Assembly: GCF_014649915.1 (NCBI RefSeq)
Contig: NZ_BMTY01000002.1
Span: 336,081 to 400,080 of the forward strand
Length of the DNA: 64,000 bases
Direction of reading: 5' to 3'
DNA from: Streptomyces toxytricini
Lineage (GTDB): Bacteria; Actinomycetota; Actinomycetes; Streptomycetales; Streptomycetaceae
Each line of letters starts with the position of its first letter. Position 1 is the first letter of the stretch. Positions 11,615 to 43,627 of the stretch are shown here, piece after piece. The notes under the pieces were generated by a model. The model was not told where the DNA came from. It did not search any database and saw nothing but the letters and a program-made list of their open reading frames with translations. The translations under genes and the position numbers were made by a program.

Positions 11615-11696
11615 TCGATGTGCAGCCGTTTTCGCTTGGCTGCGCATCAGACTGTACAGCAGCCCGGGGGGTGCGGTCGAACCGGCGGGCGCCCCG

Positions 11697-23460: not shown

Positions 23461-23512
23461 CGGCCGGGGAGCGCCCCGCGCGGTTTCGACCGGGCGGGGC
23501 GCTCCCGTGTGT

Positions 23513-25046: not shown

Positions 25047-25544
25047 TCAGCAGCCGCAGGCGGCGCCTTCGGCGGCGGGGGCGGTCAGCGGGTCGGGGGC
25101 GGAGCGGCGCAGCCCGGCGGAGTCCTCGACGGGGAAGCCCTCGCGGGACCAGTACTCGTAGCCGCCGAGCATCTCCTTGACCCGGTAGCCGGCGGTGGCG
25201 AAGGCGTGGGCGGCGCGCGTCGCGCCGTTGCAGCCGGGACCCCAGCAGTAGGTGACGACGGTGCTGCCGGGCGGTACGGCCTCGGCGGCGCGGGCCGGGA
25301 TCTCGTCGGTGGGCAGGTGCACGGCGCCCGGGATGCGGCCCTGGGCCCAGGCTTCGGCGCTGCGGCTGTCGACGAGGACGAAGCCGGGGGCGCCGGACTC
25401 GATGTCGGCGTGGACGTCGGCGACGTCGGCCTCGAAGGTGAAGCGGCGGTGGAAGTGGGCGGCGGCGGCCGCCGGGTCGGCGGGCGGTACGCGCAGCACC
25501 TTGGAGGCAGTGGCGGCGGGGGCGGTCTGCGGGACGGTGGTCAT
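25047..25544 (-). CDS. Rhodanese-like sulfurtransferase
   Basis: This 165-residue protein has one rhodanese domain. FVLVDSRSAEAWAQGRIPGA is the N-terminal CH2A-like motif and TYCWGPGCNG near residue 101 is the active-site loop, with Cys as persulfide carrier. The longer loop with a second Cys (CWGPGC) and the terminal ACGC are unusual. The stop is the 3' end of the 12-gene leftward run, and the start overlaps the permease stop by 4 bp. It could supply sulfur or detoxify for the cluster, or be an old neighbour co-transcribed with it. Confidence 0.85.
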   Translation of the reverse strand: MTTVPQTAPAATASKVLRVPPADPAAAAAHFHRRFTFEADVADVHADIESGAPGFVLVDSRSAEAWAQGRIPGAVHLPTDEIPARAAEAVPPGSTVVTYCWGPGCNGATRAAHAFATAGYRVKEMLGGYEYWSREGFPVEDSAGLRRSAPDPLTAPAAEGAACGC

Positions 25545-26575
25545 GCGGTGTGCTCCTTGGGACGGGGGCGGCGCAGGGCCGCCACGGCGATGAGGCAGTA
25601 CAGGGCCGCGGTGGCGGTACCGGGGCCGGCGAGCAGGACGGCGGCGGGCCGGTGGGCGGCCGCGCCGGCGGCGAGGAAGGCGAGGGCGAGGGCGGCGCCG
25701 GAGAGGACGCCGCCGCGGCGGGAGCGGCCGCCGCCGAGTTCGGTCCAACGGGCCGCGGCAGCCTGGAGGTTGGTCCGGCAGTACGACCAGCACAGCGCGG
25801 CCGCGGCCGCACCGAGGACGGCCGCCGCAGCCGGATGCGGCGGCGGGGCGGACGGGTCGTGGGGGGCGGCCAGTACGGCGTACAGGGCTCCGGCGGCGGC
25901 CAGGCCGAGCAGGGCGCCGGCCAGCACGCGGGGCCGGGCCGCGGACGGCACGGTCCCTTCGAGCCCGACCCAGCCGAACAGCAGCGGCACCGCCGCCGCG
26001 GCGGCCCACCATCCGGTGGCGCCGGAGCCGGGGAACGGCCCGCCGAAGCCCCACCAGGCGGCGGCCACCGCTGCCACTGCGGCGAGCCGCAGCCGCCGGG
26101 CGGCGGGCGAGGGGCCCTGCGGGCCGAGCCAGGCGCGGCAGGCGGCGGCGGCCAGCACGGCGGCGGCGACCACGTGGGCCCGCCAGCCGGAGTCGCCGCC
26201 CGGGGCGAGCGCGGCCGCGGCGTAGCCGCCCGCCGCGAGGGCGACGGCCGCCTGGCCGGTGGCGAAGCCGCCGAAGTACAGCGCGGTGGCCGCGCGGGCC
26301 GCGCGCGGGCCGAGCCGGTCCCGTACGAAGGCCACCGGCCCGCGGCGGTCCGTGCCGCCCGCGGCGGCTACGAGCAGGCACCAGCAGGCGAGCGCGGCGG
26401 CCACCGCCGCCACGACCCGGGCGGGCACCGGCCCGAGTACCCCCGGCAGCACCAGCAGCCCGGCCCCCAGCACCCCGAGCAGCGTCCGCCGCGCCCCTTC
26501 CGCCGGCCCGCCCGCGGCGGCCCGCGGCCCGCGCGGTCCGGCGGGGGCGGGCGCGGACACGGGGGAGGCGGTCAC
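25541..26575 (-). CDS. Predicted amino-acid permease (APC-like membrane protein)
   Basis: This 344-residue, very Ala-rich integral membrane protein has about ten hydrophobic segments. TLLGVLGAGLLVLPG at the first helix resembles the glycine-rich first unwound helix of APC-family amino acid transporters. The GTG start overlaps the MetRS-like stop (GTGA) and its own stop overlaps the rhodanese start. It is shorter than typical 450-residue permeases, so the assignment is tentative. In context it may import an amino acid precursor or export or retrieve the product. Confidence 0.6.
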   Translation of the reverse strand: MTASPVSAPAPAGPRGPRAAAGGPAEGARRTLLGVLGAGLLVLPGVLGPVPARVVAAVAAALACWCLLVAAAGGTDRRGPVAFVRDRLGPRAARAATALYFGGFATGQAAVALAAGGYAAAALAPGGDSGWRAHVVAAAVLAAAACRAWLGPQGPSPAARRLRLAAVAAVAAAWWGFGGPFPGSGATGWWAAAAAVPLLFGWVGLEGTVPSAARPRVLAGALLGLAAAGALYAVLAAPHDPSAPPPHPAAAAVLGAAAAALCWSYCRTNLQAAAARWTELGGGRSRRGGVLSGAALALAFLAAGAAAHRPAAVLLAGPGTATAALYCLIAVAALRRPRPKEHTA

Positions 26576-28230
26576 GACAGCTCGTGGAAGTACAGCGGGA
26601 CCGACGCCGGGAGGGTGCTGCCCGCGGGCAGCAGGCGGCCCTCCGGCCACCCCGGCATGCGGGTCGCGAGGTCCACCGGGAGGCCCAGCCGCTCCGCGAG
26701 GAACGCCGACCAGCCCGGCATCAGCGGCGCCGCCGTGGCCGCGACCGCGGCGAGGAGTTCGGCGTGCGCGGCGAGGCGCGCCGCGTACCGGGCGCGCGGG
26801 CCGGAGGCCCGCAGCAGGGCCAGCTCGCGCAGGTCGGCGTCGGCCCGCTCCACCGCGGTGGCCAGGACGTCGGCCGCGCGCTGCGGGGAGAACGCCTCGG
26901 CGCCGAGGGCCTGCGCGATCCGTCCGGGCAGCGCGGCCCGCTCGGCGGCGGCCGGCCCCCCGGCGTCCGCGCCGTCCGCACCGTCCGCGCCGTCCGGGAC
27001 GGTCGAGTCGAAGTCCCGGGCCAGCAGGTCCAGCACGGTGTCCGTCCACCGCTCCAGCGAGCCCGCCAGCACCGTGCTGACCGTGTCGGCGAACTCCTTC
27101 ATGGAGAAGTTGTTCTGCGCCCGCTCGGGCCCGGTCAGGCACAGGTGGAAGCGGAGCGCGTCCGCGTTGACCCGCCGCAGGAACTCGCCGCCCCAGATGG
27201 CGTGTCCGCGGCTGGTGGAGAACTTCTCGCCCTCCAGCCGGTAGAACTCGTTCGTCACCACCTGCGCCGGCAGGGTCAGCCCGCCCCGCGCGAGCAGCAG
27301 CGCCGGCCACAGCACGGCGTGCGAGAACGAGCAGTCGAAGCCGATGAAGTTGACGATCCGGGTCTCCGGGTCGGTCCACAGCCGCTCCCACTGCGACCGG
27401 TCGCCGTTCGCCTCGGAGAGCCGGGCCGTGGCGGCCGCGTAGCCCCAGATGCCGCTGAACCAGGTGTCGAGGACGTGCCCCTCCCAGCCGGGCAGCGGCA
27501 CGGGGATGCCGTAGCCGGCCTCGCGGCTGATCGGGGTGTCGGGCAGCGGGCCCCGCGCGAACAGCCCCTGCAGGTAGGCGACCAGGCGGGGCCGCCACTC
27601 GGCGCGGGCCTGCGCCTCGGCGTAGTAGGCGGCCAGCTCCTCGCGGCGCGGCTCCAGCGGGAAGACGATGCGGCGCAGCGTGCGCGTCTCCGGGGCGGTC
27701 CGGCAGGCGGTGCACTTGGGGTCGGCGAGGCCGGCCGGGTCCTGGGGGAGGCCGCAGGCCTCGCAGTAGACGCCGTCGGAGGGCTCCGCGCAGAACTGGC
27801 AGCAGCCGCGGACCTCGGCCTCGTACAGGTGGCGGTCGCAGGGCCCGCAGTGGAAGACGGGCAGCTCCTGCACCTCCAGCGCGCCGGACTCCCACAGGTC
27901 GAGGAAGAAGCGCTGGACGAACTCGGTGTGGACGGGGTCGGTGAGCGGGCGGGTGAACCAGTCGTGGTGCATGGCGCCCAGCGAGAGGGTCTCCTCCATG
28001 CGGTCGCCGAACAGCCGCGCCGTCGGGCGCGCGGTGGAGCCGATCTCGGCGGCCCGGCGGGGCACGTAGCAGGAGTGCTCGTCGGAGTAGCCCACGTGGC
28101 GGACGTCGTGGCCGCGCTGGCGCAGGTGGCGGGTGAGGACGTCCGCGCCGAGGAACGGGCCGGAGAGGTGGCCGAGGTGGAGGTCGCCGTTCGGGTTCGG
28201 CGGGGCGCTGGTGACGACGTACGCGGTCAT
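26572..28230 (-). CDS. Methionyl-tRNA-synthetase-like protein (putative hydrazine synthetase component)
   Basis: This 552-residue class I synthetase fold has the HIGH motif as HLGH (residues 18-21), a variant KMSKS loop KFSTSRG near residue 338, and four CxxC zinc knuckles between about residues 125 and 180. [16 protein letters not shown] replaces the usual MetRS IGKD segment, and YSDEHSCYV replaces GTDEHG. These changes at substrate-facing positions suggest a specialised paralogue rather than the housekeeping enzyme. In s56-p1 and triacsin pathways a cupin-MetRS fusion joins N-hydroxylysine to glycine through an N-N bond; here the MetRS part is a separate gene beside a cupin. Role inferred from that precedent. 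Overlaps both neighbours by 4 bp. Confidence 0.75.
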
Positions 28231-28889
28231 GGCGTGGGGGTTCCTTCGGGGACGGTCACGGCAGGGGAGGCGGGGGCCGCCGTGTCGAGGGGCGGCAGGG
28301 CGGCGGAGGCGGCGGCGACGACGCGGCTGCGCGGCGGCAGGTCGTCCAGGACGACGGAGTGGGCGCCGATCCGGGAGTCCGCGCCGACGGTGACGGGGCC
28401 CAGCACGCTGGCGCCGGTGCCGATGACGACGCGGTCGCCGACGACGGGGTGGCGGCGCGATCCGGAGGGGCGGCGCAGGTCCTTCCACCAGCCGACGGAG
28501 CCCAGCGTGACCTGGTGGTACAGCATCACGTCGTCGCCGATGCGGACGGTCTCGCCGATGACGACGGCGGTGCCGTGGTCGATGAAGAAGCGGCGCCCGA
28601 TCCGCGCCCCGGGGTGGATCTCGATCCCGGACACGGCGCGGGCGAGCAGGGACAGGGCGCGGGCTGTGACGCGGTGGCCGCCGCGCCACAGCCGGTGGGC
28701 GATCCGGTACGTCCACAGGGCGTGGATGTGCGGGTAGAGGAGCACCTCCGCGCGGGAGCGGGCGGCGGGGTCCTTGTCGAGGACGGTCGCGACGTCCTCG
28801 CGGAGCACCTCCCGCAGCGGCCGCCGCGCCGCGGCCGCTCCGGGCGCTCCGGGAGCTCCGGTGTCGCGGGTGGACTCACATGTGGTCAT
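28227..28889 (-). CDS. Serine O-acetyltransferase-like (CysE) acyltransferase
   Basis: This 220-residue left-handed beta-helix protein has the CysE core [20 protein letters not shown] and [19 protein letters not shown] (about residues 90-135), carrying the Asp/His catalytic pair. The N-terminal helical bundle is short, as in actinobacterial CysE. The C-terminal tail is Ala/Pro-rich. No cysteine synthase partner lies nearby. It may therefore make O-acetylserine as a building block or acetylate a pathway hydroxyl group. It overlaps the MetRS-like start (4 bp) and the oxidase stop (14 bp). Confidence 0.8.
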
Positions 28890-30084
28890 ACGGGGCCTCC
28901 GGGCGGATCGGGTGGCCGGCGAGGAACCGCTGCGGCCGGTACGGCTCCAGCAGCTCCTGTACGGCCTTGCCGGGCACGGCCCCGCCCTCGGCGATCTCCA
29001 GGGCGGCGAGTTCGGCGACGGCGGGCGCGAGCTTGAAGCCGCCCCCGCTGAAGCCGAGCGCCAGGTAGAGGCCGTCGGGGCCGGCCGCGCCGACGACGGG
29101 CCGCTTGTCCGGGGTGTAGCCGTCCAGGCCGGAGCGGGTGCCGGCGAGCGGGGCGGCGGCCGCGGCGGGCACCCGGTGGGCGACGGCGGCGATCGCGGCC
29201 TCCAGCTCGGCCTCGGTGAGCGGCTCGACGTCCCGGCCGAGCTCGGTGTCGGGCTTGCTGGGCACGCCGAAGTAGAAGCGGTCCAGGCCGTCGGGCCGGA
29301 AGTAGCTGCCGGTGGTGTCGTCGATGCACGTCGGCACGGAGGCCGCCGAGCCGCGCCGCCCGGCACCGGGCAGTTCGGCCTGCGCGAGGCCGATGCGGCG
29401 GGCGGTGACGGGGATGTGGATGCCGAGGTACTCGGCGGGCGCCGAGCCCCACGCCCCGCCCGCCAGGACCACCAGCGGGGAGTCGATCCGGCCGATGGAG
29501 GTCAGGACGCCCGTGACGGTGCCGGCGCGTTCCAAGACCTTCACCGCGCGGATGCCCTCGGAGGGGGACACACCGAGCCGGTAGGCGGCGCCCAGCAGCG
29601 AGGCGGTGGCGGCGAGCGGGTCGGCGTAGCCGCCTTCCGGCTCGTACGCGGCGAGCCCGACGCCCTCGGTGCGAAGGCCCGGGTAGAGGGCCTTCAGTTC
29701 GGCGGCGTCGACGACCTCGGTGCGCCGGTAGCCGGCCGCGTCGCTCGCGGCGGCCGCGTTCTGCCGCAGGCCGTCGGCGTGGTCCTCGCCGACGATCATC
29801 ACGAAGCCGGTGCGGCGGTAGCCGCAGTCGCCGCCGATGACGTCCGCCCACTGCTCGAAGACGGGCAGGCTGCGGGCGGCGAGGCGGGTGTCGGCGACGG
29901 AGGTGTGGTGCAGCCGCAGGAGGCCGCCGGAGCGGGAGGTGGCGCCCTGGGCGCTGACCCGGCCCTGGTCGCACAGGACGATCCGGCCGAGGCCGGCGAG
30001 GGCGAGCCGGTGGGCGATGGCCGCGCCGATGACCCCGCCGCCGACCACGACGGCGTCGGCGTGGGCGTGCACGACGGGGCTCAT
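28876..30084 (-). CDS. FAD-dependent amine oxidase (DAO / glycine-sarcosine oxidase family)
   Basis: This 402-residue flavoprotein has the N-terminal dinucleotide fold [19 protein letters not shown] (residues 11-29) and the C-terminal family motif [18 protein letters not shown]. Between them, [11 protein letters not shown] is typical of DAO-family enzymes. In triacsin and s56-p1 biosynthesis a DAO-type flavoenzyme cleaves the N-N-linked lysine adduct oxidatively to release hydrazinoacetate. The gene's position directly after the cupin (4-bp overlap) makes that role the best inference here. Generic amino acid oxidation is the alternative. Confidence 0.8.
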
Positions 30085-30518
30085 GCCGCGCCCCGCCCGT
30101 CCGCACCGGGGGCGCCGTCCGCACCGGGGTCCGCGATGCCGAACTCGGCGGCCCACTTGGCGCGGTCGCGGGCGACGGCCTCGGAGCCGCCCCACCAGAT
30201 GGTGAGGAAGCGGAGCCGCTCCGCGCCGTCGTTGGTGAGGTCGTGGTCGAGGCCGGGCGTGATGAAGACGGTCTCCCCGGCCCGCACGCGGCGGGTCTCC
30301 GAGCCGATCCGCATCAGCCCGCTGCCCTCGGTGACGAAGAACATCTCGTTCTCGTCGTGCAGGTGCGCGGTGGAGGTGGCGCCGGGTGCCACGTCGACCC
30401 AGGCGCCGCCCCAGTTGGGCTCCTCGACGGCCTCCGGCCAGGGGAAGATCCGCCGGCCGCTGACGTTGTACTGCTCCTCGAAGACCATGTCGTCCTCGTG
30501 GGCGGTGAAGATGTGCAT
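30081..30518 (-). CDS. Single-domain cupin (putative N-N bond-forming component)
   Basis: This 145-residue cupin carries metal ligands in motif 1, [16 protein letters not shown] (His, His, Glu, near residues 52-58), and motif 2, ITPGLDHDL (His near residue 93). A Trp-rich IWWGG lies near the end of the barrel. In characterised hydrazine synthetases a zinc-binding cupin domain fused to a MetRS domain rearranges an N-hydroxylysine ester to form the N-N bond. Here the cupin is free-standing, between an N-hydroxylase and a DAO-type oxidase. It might instead be a sugar or thiol isomerase, but the neighbours argue against that. Confidence 0.78.
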
Positions 30519-30534
30519 CGCGTACGGGTTCCAA

Positions 30535-31863
30535 TCAGGCGGCGACGGGCGCGGCGGGCCGGCTGAGGCGGGCCCGCAGGTCGCGGTGGACGGTGTCGGC
30601 CTTGGCGGCCATCTGGCTGAAGGAGGTGGCGCTGCCGATGCCGTGCCGCCACTCGGTGAGGCCGTCGAGGTAGATCCCGACCTCGCAGTCGCCGGTGGTC
30701 TCGGCCCGGTAGGCGCGGGTGACCTCGGGTCGGCCCTGCGGGTCGAGCCGCAGGTACGGGACGAACGCGGCGAGCTGCCGGGGCAGGGCGGGCTCGCGGT
30801 AGCCGGTGCAGACGATCACGGCGTCGGCGGTGACCAGTCCCCGCTCGCCGGTGAAGACCTCCTCGGTGGCGAGCCGCACCCGGCCGCCGTCCTCCTGCCC
30901 GACGGAGGCGATCTCGGTGCGCCGGTGCATGTGCAGCCGGTTCCGGCCGGTGAACCGGTCCTGGTAGGCGGCCTGGTAGAGGGCGGTGGAGACGTCCGGG
31001 TCGACGGCCGCGTAGTTGGTGGCGCGGGCCTGCTCCAGGGCGCGTTCGCGCTGCTCGCCTTCGAGTCCGTAGAAGTAGTCGGTCTCGGCCGGGAAGTAGA
31101 CCTCGTTGCTGAAGTGGCCGAGCTCGTACATCCGGAAGCCGGCGTGCCGGACGAGGGAGTGGATCTGCGCGTCGGGGTGCTGTGCGGCCAGGTGCAGGAC
31201 GATCTCGCCGGCGGTCTGGCCGGCCCCGATCACGGCGATGCTGCGCAGCGGGGTCCCGGAGAGCGCGGCGAGGGCCGGCAGCAGCCGCGAGGCGTGGAAG
31301 ACCCGCTCGCCCAGGTGCGGGCGGAGCAGCTCGGGCACGTACGGCTCGTGGCCGGTGGCGAGGGCGACGTTGCGGCCCTCGACGGTGTGCAGGGAGCCGT
31401 CGCGGGGGTCGCGGGAGGTGACGCGGGCGGTGCGGACGCGGCCGTCGGGCCCGGTGACGGGCTCGATGCCGAGGACTTCGCGGTGGTATTCGACGGTGCC
31501 GCGGACCTGCCGGGCGGCCCACTGGACGTAGTCCGACCACTCCAGGCGGCTGACGTAGCCGCCCATCAGCGTGAACGGGTAGAAGCGGCCGCTCTGCTGC
31601 AGGTAGTGGGGGAAGGTGAAGCGGGAGCGGGCGTCGCGCGGGGTGGCGAAGTCGCGCAGGAAGTGATGCTGGATGTCGGTGCCGGGCAGGACGAGGTTGG
31701 GCTGCCAGGCCGAGTCGGCGGCCTTCTCCAGGTAGCGGGCGGCGAGCGGCGGGCCGCCGGCCGCGTCGTCGTGGTCCTCGACGGCGGCGGCGAGCGCGAT
31801 CCCGGAGGGCCCGAATCCGGCGACGACGAGGTCCTGGACGGCGGTGTCGCGGGCGGCGGCCAT
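30535..31863 (-). CDS. Diamino-acid side-chain N-monooxygenase (SidA/IucD family), copy A
   Basis: This 442-residue flavin monooxygenase has FAD-binding GFGPSG at residues 16-21, an NADPH motif [11 protein letters not shown] near residue 224, and the late [10 protein letters not shown] of ornithine/lysine N-hydroxylases near residue 355. Such enzymes hydroxylate the terminal amine of lysine, ornithine or shorter diamino acids. The ATG overlaps the stop of the diaminobutyrate-type aminotransferase gene, which suggests coupled expression and perhaps a shared diaminobutyrate substrate. The cupin follows 16 bp downstream, so this copy is the likeliest supplier of the N-hydroxylated partner for N-N bond formation. 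Confidence 0.85.
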
Positions 31864-33266
31864 CACGCGGCCCCCGCCGCCGCGCCGAGCCCCTCCAGGG
31901 CGGCGGCCAGCGCCGCGCGGATGATCCGGCCGGCGTGGTCGATCTCCTCGGCGGTGCAGTTCAGCGGGGGCAGCATGCGCACGACGCAGTCGTCCCGGCC
32001 GCCGAGTTCGAGGATCAGCCCGCGGCTGACGGCCTCCCACTGGACGCGGCGGGCCAGTTCGGACGCGGGCCGACCCGTGGCGGGGTCGGTCAGCTCGACG
32101 CCGGCCATCAGGCCGAGGCCGCGTACGTCGGCGACCCACAGGCCGAGCTCGCGCAGCCCTTGGAGGTGGACCATCAGCTGGTCGGCGCGGGCCCGGACGT
32201 TCTCCAGGACGCGCTCGCGCCGCACCACCTTCAGGGTGGCGGCGCCCGCGGCGAACGCGGGCTGGTTGCCGCGGAAGGTGCCCGAGTGCGCGCCGGGCTT
32301 CCACACGTCGAGCTTCTCGTCGTAGAGGATCACGGAGGCGGGCAGCCCGATCCCGGACAGCGCCTTGGAGGCGCACACCACGTCCGGCTCGATGCCGTAC
32401 TGCTCGAACGCGAACCAGGTGCCGGTGCGGCCGCAGCCGCTCTGCACCTCGTCCACGATCAGCGGGATCCCGAGCCGCCGGGTGACCTCCCGGACCCGCT
32501 GGACGAACTCGACCTCGGCCGGGATCACCCCGCCCTCGCCCTGCACCAGCTCCATCAGGACGGCCGCGGGCGGGGTGAGGCCGCCGTTGGAGTCGGTGAG
32601 CGCCTTCTCCAGGAACGCCGCGCAGTTCACCTTGCAGGTGTCCCGGGTCAGGCCGAGCGGGCAGTCGTGGCAGTGCGAGTACGGGAAGAAGTGCACGCCC
32701 GGCATGCGGCCGCGGACGGGCTCCTTCTGCTCGACCAGGCCGGTCACGCTGAGCGCGGCCAGGGTGGCGCCGTGGAAGCCGCCCTGGAAGGTGACGACCT
32801 CGTCGCGGCCGGTGGCGGTCTTGCACAGCTTCAGCGCGGCCTCGACGGCGTTGGCGCCGGTCGGCCCGCAGAAGTGGATGCGGGTGCGCCCGCGCATCGG
32901 CTCGGGCAGCATCCCGAGGGTCAGCTCGGTGAACTCGTCCTTCACCGGAGTCGGGAAGTCCAGGCCGTGGACGAACTCGTCGAGCTGCCGGTGCGCCGCG
33001 GCCAGCGGCTCGGGGTGGTTGTGGCCGAGCGAGAGGACGCCCGCGCCGCTGAGGAAGTCGAGGAAGACGTTCCCGTCGAGGTCCTCGACGTACGAGCCGC
33101 GGGCGCGGCGGATCGCCATCGGCAGCTTGCGCGGGTAGGAGCGCGAGTTGGACTCGCGGCCGGCCTGCCGGTCCAGGAGTTCGGCGCTGCGGGGGCCGGG
33201 CAGCGGGCCGGTGACGCGGGGCTCGCTGTAGATGCGGTCGGCGGGGGCGTCGATCGTGGCGGTCAT
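31863..33266 (-). CDS. Diaminobutyrate--2-oxoglutarate-type aminotransferase
   Basis: This 467-residue class III PLP transaminase has the PLP phosphate region [15 protein letters not shown] near residue 133 and the aspartate motif [14 protein letters not shown] near residue 258. The Schiff-base Lys is in [11 protein letters not shown] near residue 300. The CHDCPLG stretch (near 195) and the [13 protein letters not shown] end match DABA aminotransferases, which make 2,4-diaminobutyrate from aspartate semialdehyde. This points to a four-carbon diamine building block. Ornithine or lysine amine transfer cannot be excluded. Confidence 0.82.
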
Positions 33267-33287
33267 GGGGCGGAAGGACCTTTCCGG

Positions 33288-34682
33288 TCAGGCGGCGGCG
33301 AGGACGGCGTCGCGGCCGGGCGCGGCCGTGGCGGACAGGCGGGCGGTCAGGGCGTCGGCGAGGGTTGCGGCGCGCAGCGACAGCAGGCTGAAGGAGCCGG
33401 CGTCGCCGATGCCGTGGCTGGACTCGCACAGCCCGTTGAGGAAGAGCGGCGGGACGCCGTCGGCGACGGGCTCCAGGGCGTAGTCGGCGGCGACCTGCAG
33501 GCGGCCGTCCGGCTCGGTGGCGAAGAGCGGCGCGAGCGGGGCCATCAGCGGCGGGCACAGCTCCTCGTGCGGGCCGGGGCCCATGTTGCGGAAGCCGGTG
33601 GCGAGGACGGCGAAGTCGACGGTCTCGGTGGTGCGGGCGCCGGTGGTGCGCTCCAGGAACTCCAGGGCGATCCGGCCGTCGGGGGCGGTGGACACGCCGG
33701 TCGCCTCGTGGTTGCCGCGGACGAACGTCCGCTGGTCGCCGTCGAGTTCCTGCTCGTAGATGGCCATGTACAGCTCGCGCAGCACGTCGCCGTCGGAGGA
33801 GGAGTAGTTGGTGCCGTGCATGTACGCGTCGAGGGCCTTCTTGGCCTCGCGGGGCGCCCGGAAGTAGTAGTCCGTGAACTCGGGGAAGTAGCCCTCCTCG
33901 CTGAAGGGGCTGGTGTCCTTCAGCTTCAGGGTGTGCGAGCGGGTGTACGTCGTCACCCGCGTCCGCGGGAAGCGGCGCGAGAGGTCCAGGGCCAGCTCGA
34001 CGGCGCTCTGGCTGCCGCCGATGACGGCGACCGACTCCGGCTCCCGCCCGTCCCCGGTCAGCTCGGCGAGCTTCGGCAGGTACCGGGTGAGGTGGAAGAT
34101 CCGCGGGGTGCTCAGGCCGTCGTACGGGGCGGGGACGTACGGGGTGCGGCCGGGCGCCATGACGAGGGTGCGGCCCAGGTGGCGGTCGCCGGACATGGTG
34201 GTGACGGCGTAGACGCGCTCGCCCTGCTCCTGCACGACCTCGACGTGCGCGGCGCGCTGGTTGCAGTCGACGAGGTGGGCGAAGAAGCCGGCCGCCCAGC
34301 GGATGTAGCCGGCGTACTCCTTGCGGAGCGGGAACTCGGCGGGCAGGTTCAGGTGGCGCAGCAGCCGGCCGTGCTCGTGCAGGTAGTTCAGGAAGGAGTA
34401 GCGGCTGCGCGGGTTGCGCAGGGTCACCAGGTCGCGGCTGGGGTGGTTCTGGATGTCGGAGCCGTCCAGGAGCATGCCGGGCTGCCATTCGGGGCTCGGC
34501 CTGGCCTCCAGGAACCGTGCGGTGAGCGGTGAGCCGCGTTCCTCCAGGGCGATGGCCAGGGCGAGGTTCGCGGGGCCGAAGCCGATGCCCAGGATGTCGT
34601 GGACGGGGACGGGCTGCGCCGCGGCGGCCTGGGCTGCGGAGGCGGTGCCGGCCGGTGCGGTCGGGTGCGTCGGTGCGCTCAT
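33288..34682 (-). CDS. Diamino-acid side-chain N-monooxygenase (SidA/PvdA family), copy B
   Basis: This 464-residue second N-hydroxylase has FAD motif GIGFGPANLALAIALEE near residue 32, NADPH motif VIGGSQSAVELALDL near residue 215, and LATGFRNMG near residue 355. The SLLSLRAA and SSHGIGD segments are typical of ornithine N5-oxygenases. It differs markedly from copy A, so the two probably act on different substrates. The start overlaps the stop of the substrate-binding-protein gene (4 bp). No hydroxamate siderophore synthetase lies nearby. Confidence 0.87.
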   Translation of the reverse strand: MSAPTHPTAPAGTASAAQAAAAQPVPVHDILGIGFGPANLALAIALEERGSPLTARFLEARPSPEWQPGMLLDGSDIQNHPSRDLVTLRNPRSRYSFLNYLHEHGRLLRHLNLPAEFPLRKEYAGYIRWAAGFFAHLVDCNQRAAHVEVVQEQGERVYAVTTMSGDRHLGRTLVMAPGRTPYVPAPYDGLSTPRIFHLTRYLPKLAELTGDGREPESVAVIGGSQSAVELALDLSRRFPRTRVTTYTRSHTLKLKDTSPFSEEGYFPEFTDYYFRAPREAKKALDAYMHGTNYSSSDGDVLRELYMAIYEQELDGDQRTFVRGNHEATGVSTAPDGRIALEFLERTTGARTTETVDFAVLATGFRNMGPGPHEELCPPLMAPLAPLFATEPDGRLQVAADYALEPVADGVPPLFLNGLCESSHGIGDAGSFSLLSLRAATLADALTARLSATAAPGRDAVLAAA

Positions 34683-36190
34683 CGCGTGGTCTTCCTTGCC
34701 TTGACAGTGGTGAGGGTCGGGTTGCCGTCGAAGTCGATGCGCAGGCCCGTGATCCGGTCGGCGGCGTACACCCGCTGGTCGGTGCGGTACCAGAGCGGCA
34801 CCAGCGCCAGGTCGGCCATCGCGACGGCCTCCGCGCGGCGCCAGAATCCGGCCCGCCCGGCCGGGTCGGCGCAGCCGCGGGCGCGGGCCACGAGGGCGTC
34901 GAACTCCGGGTTCGCGTAGCGGCCTTCGTTGTCGCCGTGGGCGGTGCCGGCCGCGTCGGGCGCCGTGCAGGAGGAGTGCAGCAGCGGGTAGAGCACGTTG
35001 TCGGGGGTGGGGTAGTCGCAGGCCCAGCCGGCCCGGCAGAAGCCGGCCGCGCCGATCGAGGTGCGGTGGTCGACGAGCCCGCGGGCGTCGGTGCGCAGCA
35101 GCTCGACCCGCCAGCCCAGCACCTCCTCCAGGCCGCGTGCCAGGTCGGCGACCCACGCGTCGTGCCCGGCACCGGTGTTGTACGCGAACTGCACGCTGCT
35201 GCCCGGCCCGAGCCCGGCGCGCAGCGCGGCGGAGCGTGCCCGGTCCGGGTCGAAGGCCGTCCAGTCGGCGTCGGCCGTACCGCGCGGAGTGTGGGCCTTG
35301 CCGAACCAGGGGGAGAGCAGCGAGTGGGCGGGGGTGCGCCGGCCGTGGAAGTGCCGGTCGACGAGCCCCTGCCGGTCGATGGCGGCCGACAGGGCCCGGC
35401 GGGCGTCGAGGGAGTCCATCGGCGCCCGGTGGCAGAACGGGATCAGGTAGAACAGCCCGGCGCCCTCCTGCTCGGTGAAGCCGTCGCGGGCGGCGGCCTC
35501 GGCGGTGCGGGCGGGCGGGATGCGGGCGTAGTCGTAGGTGCCGTCGAGGAAGCGGGCGTACTCGTCGTCGAGCCCGGTGACCGGGTCGAGGACGTCGATG
35601 TGCACCTCGCGGACCTCGGGCGCGGGCCCGAGGTTCCACCGGTCGTTGCGGACGAGCCGGATCGCCCGGTGGTGCTCCCAGGGGCCGGCCATCTTGAACG
35701 GGCCGTTCCCGATCGGCATGTCGTTGTAGGCGGGGTCCAGTGCGGGGCCCGCGCACTCCGGGACGGGGCTGAAGACCGGCTGGAGCGTCTTCAGGTCGAA
35801 CTCGACGTCCGGCTCGGACAGCTCGACGACGAGCGTGGTGTCGTCGGCGGCGGTGAAGGAGCGCACGCCCGCCAGGTGGTAGGCGGTCTCCGTGGCCGCC
35901 GCCGGGTCCAGGGCCCGCGACCAGCCGCGGACGAAGCTGTGGGCGGTGACGGGCTCGCCGTTGGAGAACACCGTGTCGGGGCGCAGGGTGAACGTCCAGG
36001 TGGTGGCGTCCGCGTTGCCCTCCCAGGCCACGGCGGTGGCCGGGGCGGGCGCGCCGTCCCCGTCGAGGGCGAGGAGGCCGGTGAAGAGGAGCTTGCAGAC
36101 GAGGATGCCCTCCCCTTCCTGGGCCTTGTACGGGTCGATGGCGGTGGGCTCGGTGATTCCCATGCGGAACACGGGGTCGTCGGCGTGCAC
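34679..36190 (-). CDS. SBP_bac_5-fold (oligopeptide-binding-like) protein without signal peptide
   Basis: This 503-residue protein has the fold of DppA/OppA-type extracellular binding proteins: ITEPTAIDPYKAQEGEG at the start, TVFSNGEPVTAHSFVRGW near residue 75, DMPIGNGPFKMAG near residue 157, and AIDRQGLVDRHF near residue 265. It has no signal peptide or lipobox. The GTG start lies 52 bp after the previous stop, which leaves no room for one. No ABC permease or ATPase genes are present. It may therefore be a cytoplasmic substrate binder, chaperone or enzyme recruited to the pathway. Confidence 0.72.
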   Translation of the reverse strand: MHADDPVFRMGITEPTAIDPYKAQEGEGILVCKLLFTGLLALDGDGAPAPATAVAWEGNADATTWTFTLRPDTVFSNGEPVTAHSFVRGWSRALDPAAATETAYHLAGVRSFTAADDTTLVVELSEPDVEFDLKTLQPVFSPVPECAGPALDPAYNDMPIGNGPFKMAGPWEHHRAIRLVRNDRWNLGPAPEVREVHIDVLDPVTGLDDEYARFLDGTYDYARIPPARTAEAAARDGFTEQEGAGLFYLIPFCHRAPMDSLDARRALSAAIDRQGLVDRHFHGRRTPAHSLLSPWFGKAHTPRGTADADWTAFDPDRARSAALRAGLGPGSSVQFAYNTGAGHDAWVADLARGLEEVLGWRVELLRTDARGLVDHRTSIGAAGFCRAGWACDYPTPDNVLYPLLHSSCTAPDAAGTAHGDNEGRYANPEFDALVARARGCADPAGRAGFWRRAEAVAMADLALVPLWYRTDQRVYAADRITGLRIDFDGNPTLTTVKARKTTR

Positions 36191-36242
36191 GGTGGGGCTC
36201 TTTCCGCTTCGGGTGTGGGCGGGGGGCGGCGGGCGCGGCGGG

Positions 36243-37541
36243 TCAGGAGGCCGCGGCGGCGGCCCGGGCGGGGACGACGACCACGTCGAGCCGCTCGTCC
36301 AGCTCGGCGGCGAGCCGCTCCACCCGGTCGATGTCCTCGGGGCCGCGGTAGGGCGCGGCCACCGCCAGCGAGCCGGCGATCTCGTACCAGCCCTCGGGGG
36401 CGCGCCGCAGCCGGTCGCCGGGCCGCGAGGCGGGGATGTACGAGCGGAAGTGCGGGGAGTGCGCGGCGTCGCCCGCGTTGTTGCGGACGAGGGTCCCCGT
36501 CCGGTAGGCGAACTTGATGCAGGCCGCGGCGCGCGGGACCGCGGCGCGCGGCACCTCCCCGTCCAGGACTGCGGCGAGGGCGTCCGCGTCGTCGCCGGCG
36601 AGCACGGCCTTCGCGTACAGGCGGACCGGGTCGATGCCGTGGACCTCCCGCAGGTTGCGGTAGTTCTGGCCGCCGCTCATGCGGGTGGCGAACTCGACGA
36701 CCCGGTAGCGGCCCGCGGAGTCCTGCCGGAACTCGGCGTTGAAGAGGCAGTGCCGCACCCCGAGGGCGGCGGTGATGCCCTCCGCGGCCGCGACCAGCTC
36801 CGGCTCCTCCTGCGGGGTGCGGAAGGGGAGGGTGTAGAAGTCCTCCTCGAAGTACGGGCCGGGCATCTGCATCTTGTTGGTGACGCCCACGAGGTGGAAG
36901 CGCCCGTCCAGGACCACCCCGTCGAGGGTGACCTCCTTGCCGGGCAGGAACTCCTCCAGCAGCGCGATCTCGGGCCCGTCGCTGGGGAAGTAGCCGCCCC
37001 ACTCCTCGGCGAGCCGGGCCACGTCGGCCAGGGCCCGCTCCAACTCGCCGCGGTCGCGGACCAGGCTGACGCCGATGCTGGCGGCGAGCGCGCTGGGCTT
37101 GACGATGAACGGGTACGTGAAGGCCTCGGCGGCGGCCAGGCCCGCCTCGACGCCGTCGACGGCCGCGAACCGCGGTGCGGGCAGGCCGTGTGCGGTGAGG
37201 AAGGCGCGCTGGAGCCGCTTGTCGCGGGAGATCGCGTCCGCCTCGGGGCGCGGCCAGCGGTGGCCGAGCAGCTCGTTGACGCGGGAGGTGACGGCGATGT
37301 CGCTGTCGTAGAAGGTGATCGCGGAGGCGATGCCGAGGCGGCGGGCGGCGGCCGCGCAGTGCTCGGCGAGCGCGGCGCCCTCCAGGTCCTCCGGGATCGG
37401 GACGACGCCGGCGAACCGGCCGTCGTCGGAGGCCTGCGCGACCGTGGTCGCGAGGTGGACCTCCAGGCCCATCCGCTCCAGCGTCTCGATGTGCTCGCGG
37501 TGCCACGCGTAGGTGTTCCGCATGATCAGCAGGATCTTCAC
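36243..37541 (-). CDS. ATP-grasp ligase, copy 1
   Basis: This 432-residue ATP-grasp protein is of the carboxylate-amine ligase type. An N-terminal Rossmann-like domain (KILLIMRNTYAWHREHIE) precedes the ATP-binding VKPSALAASIGVSLV near residue 150 and the Mg-binding EFATRMSGGQNYRN near residue 290. GTG start; its first 4 bp overlap the stop of the other ATP-grasp gene. Such enzymes make dipeptides or amides through acyl-phosphates without a carrier protein. Confidence 0.83.
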   Translation of the reverse strand: MKILLIMRNTYAWHREHIETLERMGLEVHLATTVAQASDDGRFAGVVPIPEDLEGAALAEHCAAAARRLGIASAITFYDSDIAVTSRVNELLGHRWPRPEADAISRDKRLQRAFLTAHGLPAPRFAAVDGVEAGLAAAEAFTYPFIVKPSALAASIGVSLVRDRGELERALADVARLAEEWGGYFPSDGPEIALLEEFLPGKEVTLDGVVLDGRFHLVGVTNKMQMPGPYFEEDFYTLPFRTPQEEPELVAAAEGITAALGVRHCLFNAEFRQDSAGRYRVVEFATRMSGGQNYRNLREVHGIDPVRLYAKAVLAGDDADALAAVLDGEVPRAAVPRAAACIKFAYRTGTLVRNNAGDAAHSPHFRSYIPASRPGDRLRRAPEGWYEIAGSLAVAAPYRGPEDIDRVERLAAELDERLDVVVVPARAAAAAS

Positions 37542-40285: not shown

Positions 40286-40336
40286 CCCCCCTCAACCCCT
40301 GCCCGCCGACCCGTCCCCCTTCAGGAAGGAACCCCG

Positions 40337-40945
40337 ATGAGCCCGCTCGCCGACACGGACGTGCACCGCATAGACATCCCCTCCGCCACCGAGGACCCCG
40401 CCGCGTACGTCGACGCCCTCCTCGCCGTCGCGGGAGACCGCGACCCCTTCGACGTCCTCGCGAAGACGCCCGTCTGGGCGGCCCGCCTCTTCGCCGACCT
40501 GCCCACCGAGCTCGCCGAGACCGTCCCCGAACCGGGCGAGTGGCCCGCCGCGTTCATCGTGGGCCACCTCTTCGACGTCGACGTCGTCTACGGCTTCCGC
40601 TGGCGCCTCGTCGCCACCGAGGACGACCCGGTCTACCCCGGCTACGACGAGCAGCTGTGGGCCCCGCTGCCCCGCCTGCCGTTCCGCCCGATGCTCGACG
40701 CCTGGACCGGGCTGCGCGCCTCGAACGTCGCACTCCTCGCCGCCCTGCCGCCCGCCGACTGGCAGCGGACGGGCCGCCACGGCGAGCAGGGCGGCGAAAC
40801 GATGGAGGTCATGATCCGCAAGGTCGTCGGCCACGACATCGCGCACATCAACCAGATCTACCGGGCCATCCGCCTCGTCCGGCAGGCCGCCGGCCTCGAC
40901 GTCGCCGAGCTCGACGCCACGTACGCCTCCCTCGGCCTGCGCTGA
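40337..40945 (+). CDS. DinB-superfamily protein
   Basis: This 202-residue four-helix-bundle protein has conserved His residues in FIVGHLFDVDVVYG near residue 75 and VVGHDIAHINQIYR near residue 165, placed to form the DinB metal-binding His triad. A good ribosome site (AGGAAGGA) precedes the ATG. DinB proteins include thiol-dependent transferases. In this locus it could catalyse a mycothiol- or metal-dependent step or protect against a reactive intermediate. The substrate is unknown. Confidence 0.78.
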   Translation: MSPLADTDVHRIDIPSATEDPAAYVDALLAVAGDRDPFDVLAKTPVWAARLFADLPTELAETVPEPGEWPAAFIVGHLFDVDVVYGFRWRLVATEDDPVYPGYDEQLWAPLPRLPFRPMLDAWTGLRASNVALLAALPPADWQRTGRHGEQGGETMEVMIRKVVGHDIAHINQIYRAIRLVRQAAGLDVAELDATYASLGLR

Positions 40946-40998
40946 CCCGCCCGTACCCCACCCCCTGTTCGTACCCCCCTCAGAAGGGACCCACCGCC

Positions 40999-41775
40999 AT
41001 GACCACCGCCCTCCGGACCCCCGTCCCGGACACCATCGCCGCCGTCGGCCCGGACCTGCGCGACGACCTGCGCGAGAAGCGCCACGCGCTGGTGTCTGCC
41101 GCCGACCTGACGCTCTCCCCGGAGCTCGCCGCCGCCTTCGGCGACCTCCAGGCGTCCTGGGGCCGGCTCACCCCGGACGTCCACTTCGGCGGCGGCGACC
41201 GCGCCGTCCGCACCCGCCGCTACAGCGACTTCGCGTTCACGCCAGCCACGGGCGAGCTGGTCCCGCTCGACCACGTCGCGTACTTCCAGAGCGAGGCCAT
41301 GAACGCCTTCGTCGGCGGCATCGAGCGGCACTTCGGCGACGTGGAGGAGTCGACGTACACCAACCCGCTGTTCCGGGCCCTGGTCCGCTACGACTTCGAC
41401 AACCTGCCCATCGAGGCCGAGTACCGCGACCGCGCCTGGGTGTGCCAGATCCACCAGATCCGCATCGAGATCAACCCGGGCCAGTACAACGAGCTCGTTC
41501 CCGAGGGCATCCACTCCGACGGCTACCCGTGGGCCGGCCTGCACCTCATCTCCCGCGTCGACGTCGAGGGCGGCCACAGCACCGTCTTCACCTGGGACGA
41601 GGAGCCCCTCGCCAAGGGCACGTTCCTCACCCCGCTCGACTCCCTCATCTTCGAGGACCGGGCGATGAAGCACCACGTGACCGGCCTGAGCGCGGGCGAG
41701 GACAAGGGCGGCTACCGCGACGTGCTCGCGATCTCCTTCTCCCTGCCGGGCTCCCCGTACGAGACGCTGGTCTGA
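40999..41775 (+). CDS. 2-oxoglutarate/Fe(II)-dependent dioxygenase
   Basis: This 258-residue protein resembles the 2OG-Fe dioxygenase group that hydroxylates free amino acids (for example isoleucine dioxygenase). The iron-binding HxD is in PEGIHSDGYPW near residue 172, and the distal His is in MKHHVTGLS near residue 224. QIHQIRIEINPG leads into the jelly-roll core. AGAAGGG lies upstream of the ATG. It likely hydroxylates or desaturates an amino acid unit of the product. Its stop overlaps the next ATG by 1 bp. Confidence 0.82.
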   Translation: MTTALRTPVPDTIAAVGPDLRDDLREKRHALVSAADLTLSPELAAAFGDLQASWGRLTPDVHFGGGDRAVRTRRYSDFAFTPATGELVPLDHVAYFQSEAMNAFVGGIERHFGDVEESTYTNPLFRALVRYDFDNLPIEAEYRDRAWVCQIHQIRIEINPGQYNELVPEGIHSDGYPWAGLHLISRVDVEGGHSTVFTWDEEPLAKGTFLTPLDSLIFEDRAMKHHVTGLSAGEDKGGYRDVLAISFSLPGSPYETLV

Positions 41776-42263
41776 TGCCGGCGGCAGCGCTGGCGCTCGA
41801 CGAGCCGTTCGACGTACTGGTCGCGCCGCCCCCGCCGGCGGCCCCCGCGGTCTCGGCCGAGATGGCCGCCGCCGACATCCCGCAGGTCATCGCGCTGCTG
41901 CGGGCAGCGCCGCAGGCCGCGTACTGCGAGTGGGAGGACGAGGCGCTCCTGGCGGGGCACCTGGCCCACTCGGCGGACCTGTGCCGCGTGGTGCGGACCC
42001 CGTCGGGCCGCGTCGTCGCCGCGCTGCTGGCCGGCTCCTTCGGGGTGCGCGGCAGCATCAGCCACGCGGTGGTCGACCCGGGCCACCGCCGGCTGGGGCT
42101 GGCGCGGGTGATGGCGGCGGACGCCCTGGAGGCCTTCCGGCGCCGCGGGGTGCGCCGGATCTTCCTCGCCGTCCTGGACGGCAACGAGGCGGCGACCGCC
42201 CTGTGGACCGGGGTGGGATTCCGGCCGGCCCTGGGGGAGAGGACGTTCGAGTGCGACCTGTAG
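41775..42263 (+). CDS. GNAT-family N-acyltransferase
   Basis: This 162-residue GNAT protein has the acyl-CoA-binding signature HAVVDPGHRRLGLARVM near residue 95 (R/Q-x-x-G-x-G/A type, here HRRLGLA). The C-terminal AVLDGNEAATALWTGVGF is the usual fold element. ATG overlaps the dioxygenase stop (TGATG). In context it may acylate a hydroxylamine, hydrazine or amine of the product, either as a biosynthetic step or for self-protection. Confidence 0.82.
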   Translation: MPAAALALDEPFDVLVAPPPPAAPAVSAEMAAADIPQVIALLRAAPQAAYCEWEDEALLAGHLAHSADLCRVVRTPSGRVVAALLAGSFGVRGSISHAVVDPGHRRLGLARVMAADALEAFRRRGVRRIFLAVLDGNEAATALWTGVGFRPALGERTFECDL

Positions 42264-43078
42264 CAGCCCCCGCCGCCCCCGCCGCCCCCGCCGCCCCCGC
42301 CGCCCCCGCCGCCCCGGCCGCCGTGCCCGCGCCGGCGTCCGCGCCGCGGGCGTGGGCGGCCGGGCTCGGGCAGGCCGTGCCCGTGATGCTCGGCTACGTG
42401 CCGGTGGCCTTCGCGTTCGGCGTCCTCGGGCACACCGCGGGCCTGCCCTGGTGGGCGTCGGCGGCGATGTCGGCGTTCGTCTACGGCGGCTCCTCGCAGT
42501 TCGCCGCCCTCCAGCTGCTGGCGGTCGGCGCCGCCCCGTACGCGGTCGTCCTGACGACCTTCGTCGTCAACCTGCGGCACCTGCTGCTGTCCGCGGCCAT
42601 CGCGCCGCGGCTGGCCGGCTGGCGGCGCCGGGAGCAGGCGCTGTTCGCGTACGAGCTGACCGACGAGGCCTTCGCCGTGCACTCCGCGCAGTGGGCGGAG
42701 CGCGCCGAACGCCCCAAGGCGGAGGTCTTCGCCTTCAACACCGCCGTCCACGGGTCGTGGGTGGCGGGCACGCTGGCGGGCGTCCTCGCCGGGGACCTGG
42801 TCACCGACGTGGAGGCGCTCGGCCTGGACTACGCGCTGCCCGCCATGTTCATGGCCCTGCTGGCGGCCGGCGTCGTCGCGGACCGGCGCGGGCTGGCCGT
42901 CGCCGTGCTGGCCGGCGGCCTCGCGGTGGGGCTGACCCTGCTCGGCCTGGAGTACTGGGCCGTCCTGGCGGCCGCGGCCCTCGCGGCCACCTTCGGCCTC
43001 GCCCTGACCCCCCGCGAGGAGCGCTCCCGCGCCCTCGGGGAGGGCGCCGCACCCGCGGAAGGAGGTGCGGGACGATGA
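42251..43078 (+). CDS. azlC: AzlC-family branched-chain amino acid exporter subunit
   Basis: This 275-residue protein begins at GTG and overlaps the GNAT stop by 13 bp. After a repetitive Ala/Pro N-terminus, the AzlC motif VPVMLGYVPVAFAFGVLG starts near residue 43; SAFVYGGSSQFAALQ and VVNLRHLLLSAAIAP follow. With AzlD it forms a two-component exporter for branched-chain amino acids or analogues. It may be part of the locus, giving amino-acid-like product export, or a flanking housekeeping pair. Confidence 0.88.
   Translation: MRPVAAPAAPAAPAAPAAPAAPAAVPAPASAPRAWAAGLGQAVPVMLGYVPVAFAFGVLGHTAGLPWWASAAMSAFVYGGSSQFAALQLLAVGAAPYAVVLTTFVVNLRHLLLSAAIAPRLAGWRRREQALFAYELTDEAFAVHSAQWAERAERPKAEVFAFNTAVHGSWVAGTLAGVLAGDLVTDVEALGLDYALPAMFMALLAAGVVADRRGLAVAVLAGGLAVGLTLLGLEYWAVLAAAALAATFGLALTPREERSRALGEGAAPAEGGAGR
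42266..42314 (+). repeat. 9-bp microsatellite in the azlC N-terminus
   Basis: About five tandem copies of the 9-bp unit gcccccgcc encode (APA)n at the start of AzlC. Slippage by one unit keeps the frame, so only the length of the N-terminal tail would vary. Confidence 0.8.
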
Positions 43079-43401
43079 GCGGCCCCGTACTCGCCCTCAC
43101 CATCGCCGGGATGGCGGCCGTCACCTTCGGCCCCCGGCTGCTCCCGACGCTGTTCCTTGCGGCGGCGTCCCTGCCCGGGCCGGTCGTGGTCTGGCTGCGG
43201 CAGGTGCCGCCGGCGGTGATCGCCGCGCTGCTCGCCCCGCCGCTGTTCGTGCCGGACGGCCGCCTGGACCTCGGGCCGGGGAACTTCGGGCTGTGGCTCG
43301 CGGTGCCGACGCTGCTGCTGGCCTGGCGGACGCGGAACTTCTACCTCACGATCGCGTTCGGCATCGGATCCCTGGCGCTGCTCCGCTTCCTGGCGGGCTG
43401 A
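43075..43401 (+). CDS. azlD: AzlD-domain protein
   Basis: This 108-residue protein has three to four membrane helices and matches AzlD: AVTFGPRLLPTLFLA near residue 15, VWLRQVPPAVIAALLAP in the middle, and LLAWRTRNFYLTIAFG near the end. It overlaps azlC by 4 bp (ATGA) with GGAGG upstream, which confirms the AzlC/AzlD pair. It is the last gene before the initiator tRNA. Confidence 0.9.
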   Translation: MSGPVLALTIAGMAAVTFGPRLLPTLFLAAASLPGPVVVWLRQVPPAVIAALLAPPLFVPDGRLDLGPGNFGLWLAVPTLLLAWRTRNFYLTIAFGIGSLALLRFLAG

Positions 43402-43618: not shown

Positions 43619-43627
43619 CTCAGTACG

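What the first reader, a model, noticed from the sequence alone, without database searches (positions are those of the whole stretch)
25047..43401. Carrier-protein-free locus predicted to make an N-N bonded (hydrazine-type) peptide
The sequence shows a 12-gene leftward run (mostly 4-bp overlaps) and a divergent 6-gene arm. Together they hold two side-chain N-hydroxylases, a cupin, a MetRS-like protein, a DAO-type flavoenzyme, a DABA-type aminotransferase, two ATP-grasp ligases, a CysE-like and a GNAT acyltransferase, a 2OG dioxygenase and exporters. N-hydroxylase, cupin-MetRS and DAO are the known hydrazinoacetate route in s56-p1 and triacsin biosynthesis. The set here, with ATP-grasp ligases and no NRPS/PKS, does not match a pathway I know.
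Basis: partly seen in the sequence, partly recalled or inferred. Interest (0 to 1): 0.93.

Follow-up and report, generated by a model that had tools for sequence, protein, structure and literature searches.

The report
Diaminobutyrate-based hydrazine peptide gene cluster
This Streptomyces gene cluster encodes a known kind of nitrogen-nitrogen bond-making enzyme pair beside peptide-joining enzymes, and is predicted to make an unknown hydrazine-containing small peptide from the amino acid diaminobutyrate, with a serine-acetylating enzyme that likely serves the bond-making step.

Summary

The suggested hydrazinoacetate route is not supported: the MetRS pocket is neither the Gly nor the Glu type. 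The locus belongs to a distinct clade. All 24 intact relatives read carry a CysE-type acetyltransferase, against 0 of 28 other hydrazine loci, and it is fused to the MetRS in two separate lineages. A diaminobutyrate transaminase occurs in 22 of 24; in five of these it is an EctB additional to the ectoine one. Best reading: a DABA-derived hydrazine, likely coupled to a serine-derived partner, then joined by ATP-grasp ligases. Product, substrates and activity are untested. New variant of a known kind.

The parts
24041..25024 (+). LuxR/TrmB-like regulator beside the cluster
   Evidence: GerE match 20.7 bits, below its 23.5-bit cut-off; an ortholog at 63-99% next to 11 of 24 intact relatives and both relics, weaker hits in others
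25047..25544 (-). rhodanese
   Evidence: PF00581 59 bits; in 13 of the 15 relatives with both ATP-grasp genes, the other two (L005, L009) being cut before it
25541..26473 (-). membrane protein, likely amino-acid transporter type (start uncertain)
   Evidence: no Pfam match; 5 hydrophobic segments by a simple hydropathy count
26572..28230 (-). MetRS-like half of the hydrazine synthetase
28227..28808 (-). CysE-like serine O-acetyltransferase (start uncertain; longer in relatives)
   Evidence: TIGR01172 193 bits, below its 211-bit cut-off; EpsC model NF041874 190 bits over its cut-off of 150; active-site motifs kept; homologs fused to MetRS-like in P0077, P0080, P0109, P0115
28876..30084 (-). DAO-type FAD oxidase
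   Evidence: PF01266 189 bits; in 24 of 24 intact relatives
30081..30518 (-). cupin half of the hydrazine synthetase
   Evidence: PF07883 64 bits; HLHDENE and DHDL motifs; PDB hit 5UQP/RHS1 ranks third at 41 bits, after 4mv2 (65) and 4rd7 (53)
30535..31866 (-). N-hydroxylase B (SidA family)
   Evidence: PF13434 268 bits; in 21 of 24 intact relatives
31863..33266 (-). diaminobutyrate transaminase (Dat type)
   Evidence: TIGR00709 435 bits over 402
33288..34682 (-). N-hydroxylase A (SidA family)
   Evidence: PF13434 287 bits; in 24 of 24 intact relatives
34679..36190 (-). OppA-like solute-binding protein without visible signal peptide
   Evidence: PF00496 194 bits; no leader seen by eye in 16 distinct orthologs
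36243..37541 (-). ATP-grasp ligase 2
   Evidence: PF13535 72 bits
37538..38815 (-). ATP-grasp ligase 1 with LAL_C2 domain
   Evidence: PF18603 75 bits, PF13535 75 bits
39053..40285 (+). MFS exporter
   Evidence: PF07690 156 bits; in 6 of the 8 relatives read on that side
40337..40945 (+). DinB_2 protein, likely thiol transferase
   Evidence: PF12867 66 bits; in 8 of the 8 relatives read on both sides
40999..41775 (+). 2OG-Fe dioxygenase, accessory, not core
   Evidence: PF10014 165 bits; in 4 of 8 relatives read on both sides
41775..42263 (+). GNAT acyltransferase, accessory, not core
   Evidence: PF00583 44 bits; in 4 of 8 relatives read on both sides
42323..43401 (+). AzlC and AzlD exporter pair, accessory, not core
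   Evidence: PF03591, PF05437; in 4 of 8 relatives read on both sides

Best explanation
The locus encodes a cupin and a MetRS-like protein of the hydrazine synthetase family, and together they are predicted to join the hydroxylated side-chain nitrogen of L-2,4-diaminobutyrate to the alpha-nitrogen of a likely serine-derived amino acid, after which a DAO-type oxidase would trim the hydrazine and two ATP-grasp ligases would build it into an exported small peptide without carrier proteins. Steps, all inferred unless marked. (1) The transaminase makes L-DABA from aspartate semialdehyde. (2) N-hydroxylase A makes N4-hydroxy-DABA. (3) CysE makes O-acetyl-L-serine. (4) The MetRS-like enzyme activates serine or O-acetylserine and forms the O-acyl hydroxylamine; the zinc cupin rearranges it to N-N (this chemistry is shown for PyrN, PMC8664883, not here). 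(5) DAO oxidises a C-N bond beside the hydrazine, as Apy10 or Spb39 do, leaving a DABA-type hydrazine such as 2-amino-4-hydrazinobutyrate or its cyclic pyridazinone. (6) N-hydroxylase B would oxidise a later intermediate. (7) ATP-grasp ligases add amino acids; MFS exports; DinB_2 and rhodanese would guard against reactive intermediates. Shown directly: family membership, gene order, conservation, fusions, the additional EctB copies, absence of carrier domains on the contig.
Against: No activity, product or substrate was measured. I had no sequence of Apy9-11, nor of the Ser-, Ala- and Tyr-type synthetases, so the window clade may already include a characterised enzyme pair (for instance Kit1-Kit2 or Dpn5-Dpn6, listed in PMC11705231). 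DABA could be a peptide residue, with lysine still the N-hydroxylated amine. In G067 the EctB is on the opposite strand, about 5 kb from N-hydroxylase A with two regulator genes between. Two intact loci (L011, G348) show no DABA transaminase in what I read. Neither N-hydroxylase pocket was matched to a known DABA hydroxylase; both carry Arg where PvdA has Lys69 and A has Glu at the Asn254 place, but relatives L057/L058 have Gly there. N-hydroxylase B has no firm role: it is missing in G006, and a P450 (scanned in G191 only) stands in its place in G348 and G191. CysE might acetylate another intermediate, and is below the TIGR01172 cut-off. Sequence and Foldseek ranks do not single out PyrN: 1rqg (P. 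abyssi MetRS) is level with or just ahead of 9l8v. The C-terminal helical bundle of the model is still there, so loss of tRNA binding rests on sequence only.
Confidence: 0.55

Rival explanations
1. Lysine-based hydrazinoacetate pathway as in s56-p1, triacsin and azaserine: lysine is N-hydroxylated, joined to glycine, and DAO releases hydrazinoacetate, which the ATP-grasp ligases put into a peptide. DABA would be another residue of the peptide or the transaminase would recycle allysine.
For: Same gene kinds: N-hydroxylase, cupin, MetRS-like, DAO. The HAA route is the best known one (PMC11705231 section 15).
Against: The loci that I assign to the Gly type by gene content (azs-like L066, L071, L077, L084; didomain L073, L078, L081, L086) share one pocket signature that the window clade lacks; their N-hydroxylases fall far from A and B in the tree; EctB copies make DABA, not lysine; no AMP ligase or carrier protein among the cluster's families.
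Confidence: 0.15
2. Actinopyridazinone-like pathway: N4-hydroxy-DABA is joined to L-alanine, DAO cleaves the alanine side as pyruvate, and the resulting 2-amino-4-hydrazinobutyrate closes to a pyridazinone. CysE would then acetylate a product and not feed the MetRS-like enzyme.
For: DABA supply; Apy9-11 chemistry (PMC11705231 section 15).
Against: CysE fused to the MetRS-like protein in two branches and beside its gene in 24 of 24 relatives suggests it serves that step. Locus L062, with its own Dat-type transaminase, is a more Apy-like candidate and sits in another clade. No Apy sequence was compared.
Confidence: 0.2
3. The MetRS-like protein is a spare, resistant methionyl-tRNA synthetase that protects the host from a MetRS inhibitor made by the cluster.
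For: A normal MetRS is present as well, HIGH/KMSKS-type motifs are kept, and P. abyssi MetRS is a near-equal sequence match.
Against: It groups with hydrazine synthetases, not with MetRS, aligns best to the PyrN domain, has no Anticodon_3 sequence match while the housekeeping type scores 191 bits, and has a cupin gene nearby in 24 of 24 intact relatives.
Confidence: 0.03
4. Hydroxamate siderophore cluster: the two N-hydroxylases plus acyltransferases make hydroxamates that the ATP-grasp ligases join.
For: SidA-family enzymes, CysE-like and GNAT acyltransferases, MFS exporter.
Against: No siderophore synthetase family among the cluster's matches; the GNAT is in only 4 of 8 relatives read on both sides; cupin, MetRS-like and DAO have no role in hydroxamates that I know of.
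Confidence: 0.05

Closest known systems
Cupin/MetRS-like hydrazine synthetases (PyrN, Spb40, Tri28, RHS1 system)
   Same: MetRS-like fold and motifs, cupin metal ligands with essential Glu, SidA-type N-hydroxylase alongside
   Different: Separate clade from PyrN and from the azaserine- and triacsin-like types sampled; different amino-acid pocket; stand-alone halves; CysE partner
Actinopyridazinone pathway (Apy9-11)
   Same: Likely N4-hydroxy-DABA as the N-O partner, DAO-type oxidase
   Different: CysE, second N-hydroxylase and ATP-grasp ligases here; Apy sequences and the full apy gene list were not compared (pathway known from PMC11705231 section 15)
Azaserine / triacsin / N-nitroglycine clusters
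   Same: N-hydroxylase, DAO, cupin, MetRS-like
   Different: Those use glycine and lysine, with AMP ligase, carrier protein and, for azaserine, an NRPS (PMC10445470 passages, PMC13274452 section 15)
MetRS-paralog neighbourhoods of Aravind and co-workers 2010 (PMC2922099)
   Same: They list ATP-grasp ligases, diaminobutyrate transaminase and periplasmic binding proteins near such genes (section 7 part 1)
   Different: No serine acetyltransferase, CysE or hexapeptide term occurs in the main text; they proposed a Met-Lys dipeptide

Membership tests
Cupin/MetRS-like hydrazine synthetase | MetRS-like part groups apart from housekeeping MetRS | tested here: met
Cupin/MetRS-like hydrazine synthetase | ATP-binding motifs of class I synthetases intact | tested here: met
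   HLGH and KFSTS in the window protein
Cupin/MetRS-like hydrazine synthetase | Cupin with HxH...E...H ligands, Glu essential | tested here: met
   HLHDENE and DHD motifs align with the other hydrazine-locus cupins; residues from PMC8664883
Cupin/MetRS-like hydrazine synthetase | SidA-type N-hydroxylase in the locus | tested here: met
   two, PF13434 268 and 287 bits
Cupin/MetRS-like hydrazine synthetase | Forms an N-N bond | not testable with these tools
   needs enzyme assay
Hydrazinoacetate route (s56-p1, triacsin, azaserine) | MetRS pocket as in Gly-type loci | tested here: not met
   signatures differ from eight loci assigned to this type by gene content
Hydrazinoacetate route (s56-p1, triacsin, azaserine) | AMP ligase plus carrier protein downstream, as in azs and tri | tested here: not met
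   none among the cluster's families, no PF00550 on contig C2
Hydrazinoacetate route (s56-p1, triacsin, azaserine) | Lysine N-hydroxylase | tested here: inconclusive
   A and B fall far from the azs/tri-like enzymes, but substrate cannot be read from sequence
Glu-type synthetase (PyrN) | Arg in the side-chain pocket as in the PyrN domain | tested here: not met
   His304 in the window aligns with Arg in 9l8v (identity of 9l8v); that this Arg binds Glu is my inference
Actinopyridazinone pathway | Dedicated DABA supply | tested here: met
   Dat-type or additional EctB in 22 of 24 intact relatives
Actinopyridazinone pathway | Apy9-type (Ala) synthetase | not tested
   no Apy sequence was available

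The most novel reading that the evidence does not exclude
The MetRS-like hydrazine synthetase of this clade uses O-acetyl-L-serine, a near-isostere of methionine, as its amino-acid substrate: CysE makes it and hands it over (hence the two independent CysE-MetRS fusions), so that after N-N coupling to N4-hydroxy-DABA the acetate can leave and give an azoalkene or pyruvate-hydrazone, a route to alkyl hydrazine amino acids such as an aza-ornithine that ATP-grasp ligases build into a carrier-free peptide.
Probability: 0.22. Interest if true: 0.78.

Novelty: new variant of a known kind. Interest (0 to 1): 0.62.

Why it matters
It marks a separate branch of the hydrazine synthetase family, sister to the other types sampled, with a match in 12 of 394 sampled Streptomycetaceae genomes, the window's own and one relic included. 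Its partner enzyme CysE was not tied to N-N bond formation in the searches and passages I saw. If right it gives a directly testable new substrate for N-N coupling, a carrier-free way to hydrazine peptides, and a clear genome-mining handle (CysE beside or fused to a MetRS-like gene).

Tried and rejected
Hydrazinoacetate route: rejected as the leading reading (pocket, precursor gene, accessory genes). Resistance MetRS: rejected. Negamycin-like: not pursued; its hydrazine comes from a KinJ-type heme enzyme (PMC12154649 passages); I did not search for KinJ here. 'CysE occurs only in cluster carriers': I tested this and it failed, 27 of 101 Streptomyces genomes have a CysE-family hit at E 1e-25 or better; in G000 and the four other carriers in that sample the cluster copy is the only one at that level. 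N-hydroxylase pocket as proof of DABA: not decisive. Loss of the anticodon domain: only the sequence match is lost, the predicted helical bundle stays. SBP5 as a clavulanate-type OppA: the clavulanic acid protein 2wok is matched weakly, general OppA and DppA better. Searching plasmids for named relatives gave only matches under 60% identity. Regulation by the rare TTA codon: no TTA in the 23 genes checked. Paper searches for a CysE or DABA link to hydrazine synthetase found none beyond PMC2922099 and the review.

Rows dropped: the MetRS, N-hydroxylase, cupin and CysE alignments use loci L001-L013 and L051-L089, not the later L102-L121. In one search I left out L060, L009, L002, L005, L006_10 and L055 (relic, cut or near-duplicates) and used 10 of the 120 listed database homologs. 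Of 45 matches, one is the window itself, 37 were fetched with flanks and 7 were not (G130, G111, G147, G342, G054, G188, G277); so the 28 'other' loci are 28 of 35 such matches, with about 9 kb read on each side. Some places were fetched twice (G348; parts of G134 and G067). Some of the 120 listed homologs have changed HIGH-type or pocket motifs. The gene-call script missed the cupin in G848 and G006; tblastn found both. The tree was read without support values.

Recalled, from no call: which E. coli MetRS residues touch methionine and their numbers, the PvdA Lys69/Asn254/Asn284 roles, the CysE catalytic residues, the isostery of O-acetylserine and methionine, and the ectoine-pathway role of EctB.
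Full report
What is there. The window lies on contig C2:336081-400080 of a 7.2 Mb genome. The genus is Streptomyces by inference: its MetRS-like protein is 97% identical to one from Streptomyces globosus. Between a regulator at 24041 and the AzlCD pair ending at 43401 lie 12 leftward and 6 rightward genes. No carrier-protein domain was found on the contig.

A distinct clade. In the same tree the window protein and 25 relatives form a clade (support 0.964) that is sister to the other hydrazine types sampled, including PyrN and the azaserine- and triacsin-like ones. The window's pocket motifs are SDEHSCYV, VLDTWFSGI and FDCSFSHAVLWP; the loci assigned to the Gly type by gene content read SDD(F/Y)QSYV, WVWPEM and YDNSFYH. 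Aligned to E. coli MetRS, the window protein keeps Ala12, Trp253, Tyr260, Asp296, His301 and Trp305 (numbering recalled) and opens the pocket at Ala256 to Gly and Phe300 to Ser. PyrN, which takes Glu, has Arg where the window has His304. I infer a side chain larger than Gly and not acidic.

Conserved core. N-hydroxylase A, cupin, DAO, CysE and MetRS-like are in 24 of 24 (two cupins by tblastn; in G058 and L010 the cupin lies on the other strand, about 2 kb off). N-hydroxylase B is in 21; in G348 and G191 a P450 lies in the operon instead, scanned in G191 only. Both ATP-grasp ligases are in 15. Sampling gives a match in 12 of 394 Streptomycetaceae genomes and 2 of 394 in a class-wide sample, the own genome counted in both. 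Two genomes hold only a lone MetRS-like gene beside the regulator (L060, L120).

Diaminobutyrate. Seventeen of the 24 carry the window's Dat-type transaminase; five carry a different enzyme, EctB, in or beside the cluster (G154 by genome search). Those five EctB are over the equivalog cut-off, and each genome has another EctB beside EctC elsewhere (G191 has a third). In G067 the EctB is upstream on the other strand, about 5 kb from N-hydroxylase A. The two loci without either (L011, G348) are cut by a contig end on the downstream side, and L011 was read only in part upstream. Of 28 other hydrazine loci only L062 has a clear one, and two have weak hits. In azaserine clusters, saccharopine dehydrogenases are taken as lysine supply (PMC10445470 passages); by the same logic DABA is the precursor here. 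It is present also where the ATP-grasp pair is absent.

CysE. A CysE-type acetyltransferase is in 24 of 24 relatives and 0 of 28 other hydrazine loci. It sits directly upstream of the MetRS-like gene and homologs are fused to it in two separate branches (P0077/P0080 and P0109/P0115). The DHG, RHP and DPA motifs of serine acetyltransferases are kept. It scores below the TIGR01172 cut-off but over that of the EpsC serine acetyltransferase model. Against a simple reading, 27 of 101 Streptomyces genomes have some CysE-family gene. I opened four of those outside this clade; in two (L133, L136) the next gene begins like a CysK-type PLP enzyme, judged by eye. Such a partner is not among this cluster's families, so the likely user of O-acetylserine is the MetRS-like enzyme. 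This is inference.

The N-hydroxylases. A and B are sister paralogs within this clade. Both have Arg at the place of PvdA Lys69; A has Glu at the place of Asn254, B keeps Asn. A is in 24 of 24 and B is replaceable, so I assign A to the N-N step and B to tailoring, with low confidence for B.

The OppA-like protein. None of 16 distinct orthologs shows a leader sequence (19 rows with 3 duplicates, by eye and on my gene starts), so it is likely cytosolic. Its role is unknown.

Comparison with what is known. The locus passes the sequence-level membership tests of the hydrazine synthetase systems and would work like them. It does not meet the features of the hydrazinoacetate route. It shares DABA with actinopyridazinone biosynthesis, which I know from PMC11705231 (section 15 read), but Apy sequences could not be compared. 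Aravind and co-workers already listed ATP-grasp ligases, a diaminobutyrate transaminase and periplasmic binding proteins near MetRS paralogs (PMC2922099, section 7 part 1); serine acetyltransferase is not mentioned in its main text. I found no paper on this cluster in the searches, which cover open-licence papers only.

Verdict. A real, conserved, carrier-free hydrazine locus of a distinct clade; new variant of a known kind.

Noticed in passing
L079 and L082 (G285, G020), about 5300-13700 in L079: Another carrier-free-looking hydrazine locus: N-hydroxylase, cupin, MetRS-like and DAO with three ATP-grasp ligases and a berberine-bridge-type FAD oxidase, in a different clade.
   Followed up: partly
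L062 (G219), 5199-12337: Hydrazine locus with its own Dat-type DABA transaminase over the subfamily cut-off and a very divergent N-hydroxylase pocket; possibly actinopyridazinone-like.
   Followed up: partly
L060 (G205) 10542-11993 and L120 (G1042) 604-2343: Lone MetRS-like genes beside the same regulator with the rest of the cluster not seen; L060 has lost the HIGH-type motif.
   Followed up: no
L010 13610-13963, L056 10788-11141, L057 5309-5680, L058 17320-17664: Cupins of some relatives read H-NPDGESE in place of HxHxxxE, so their metal site may differ.
   Followed up: no
window 34679-36190: OppA-like binding protein without any visible signal peptide, conserved so in 16 distinct orthologs.
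   Followed up: partly
window 23388-23461 and 43545-43619: tRNA-Lys and tRNA-Met genes flank the cluster on either side.
   Followed up: no
L054/L116 (G006) and L052 (G067): DUF3291 proteins (PF11695) occur beside the hydrazine genes in these relatives, and a similar protein by its first residues in S. antibioticus (L108).
   Followed up: no
L064 7063-9471: DAO domain carried in an 802-aa ORF whose N-terminal part matches a periplasmic-binding domain (PF13458); gene start may be wrong.
   Followed up: no
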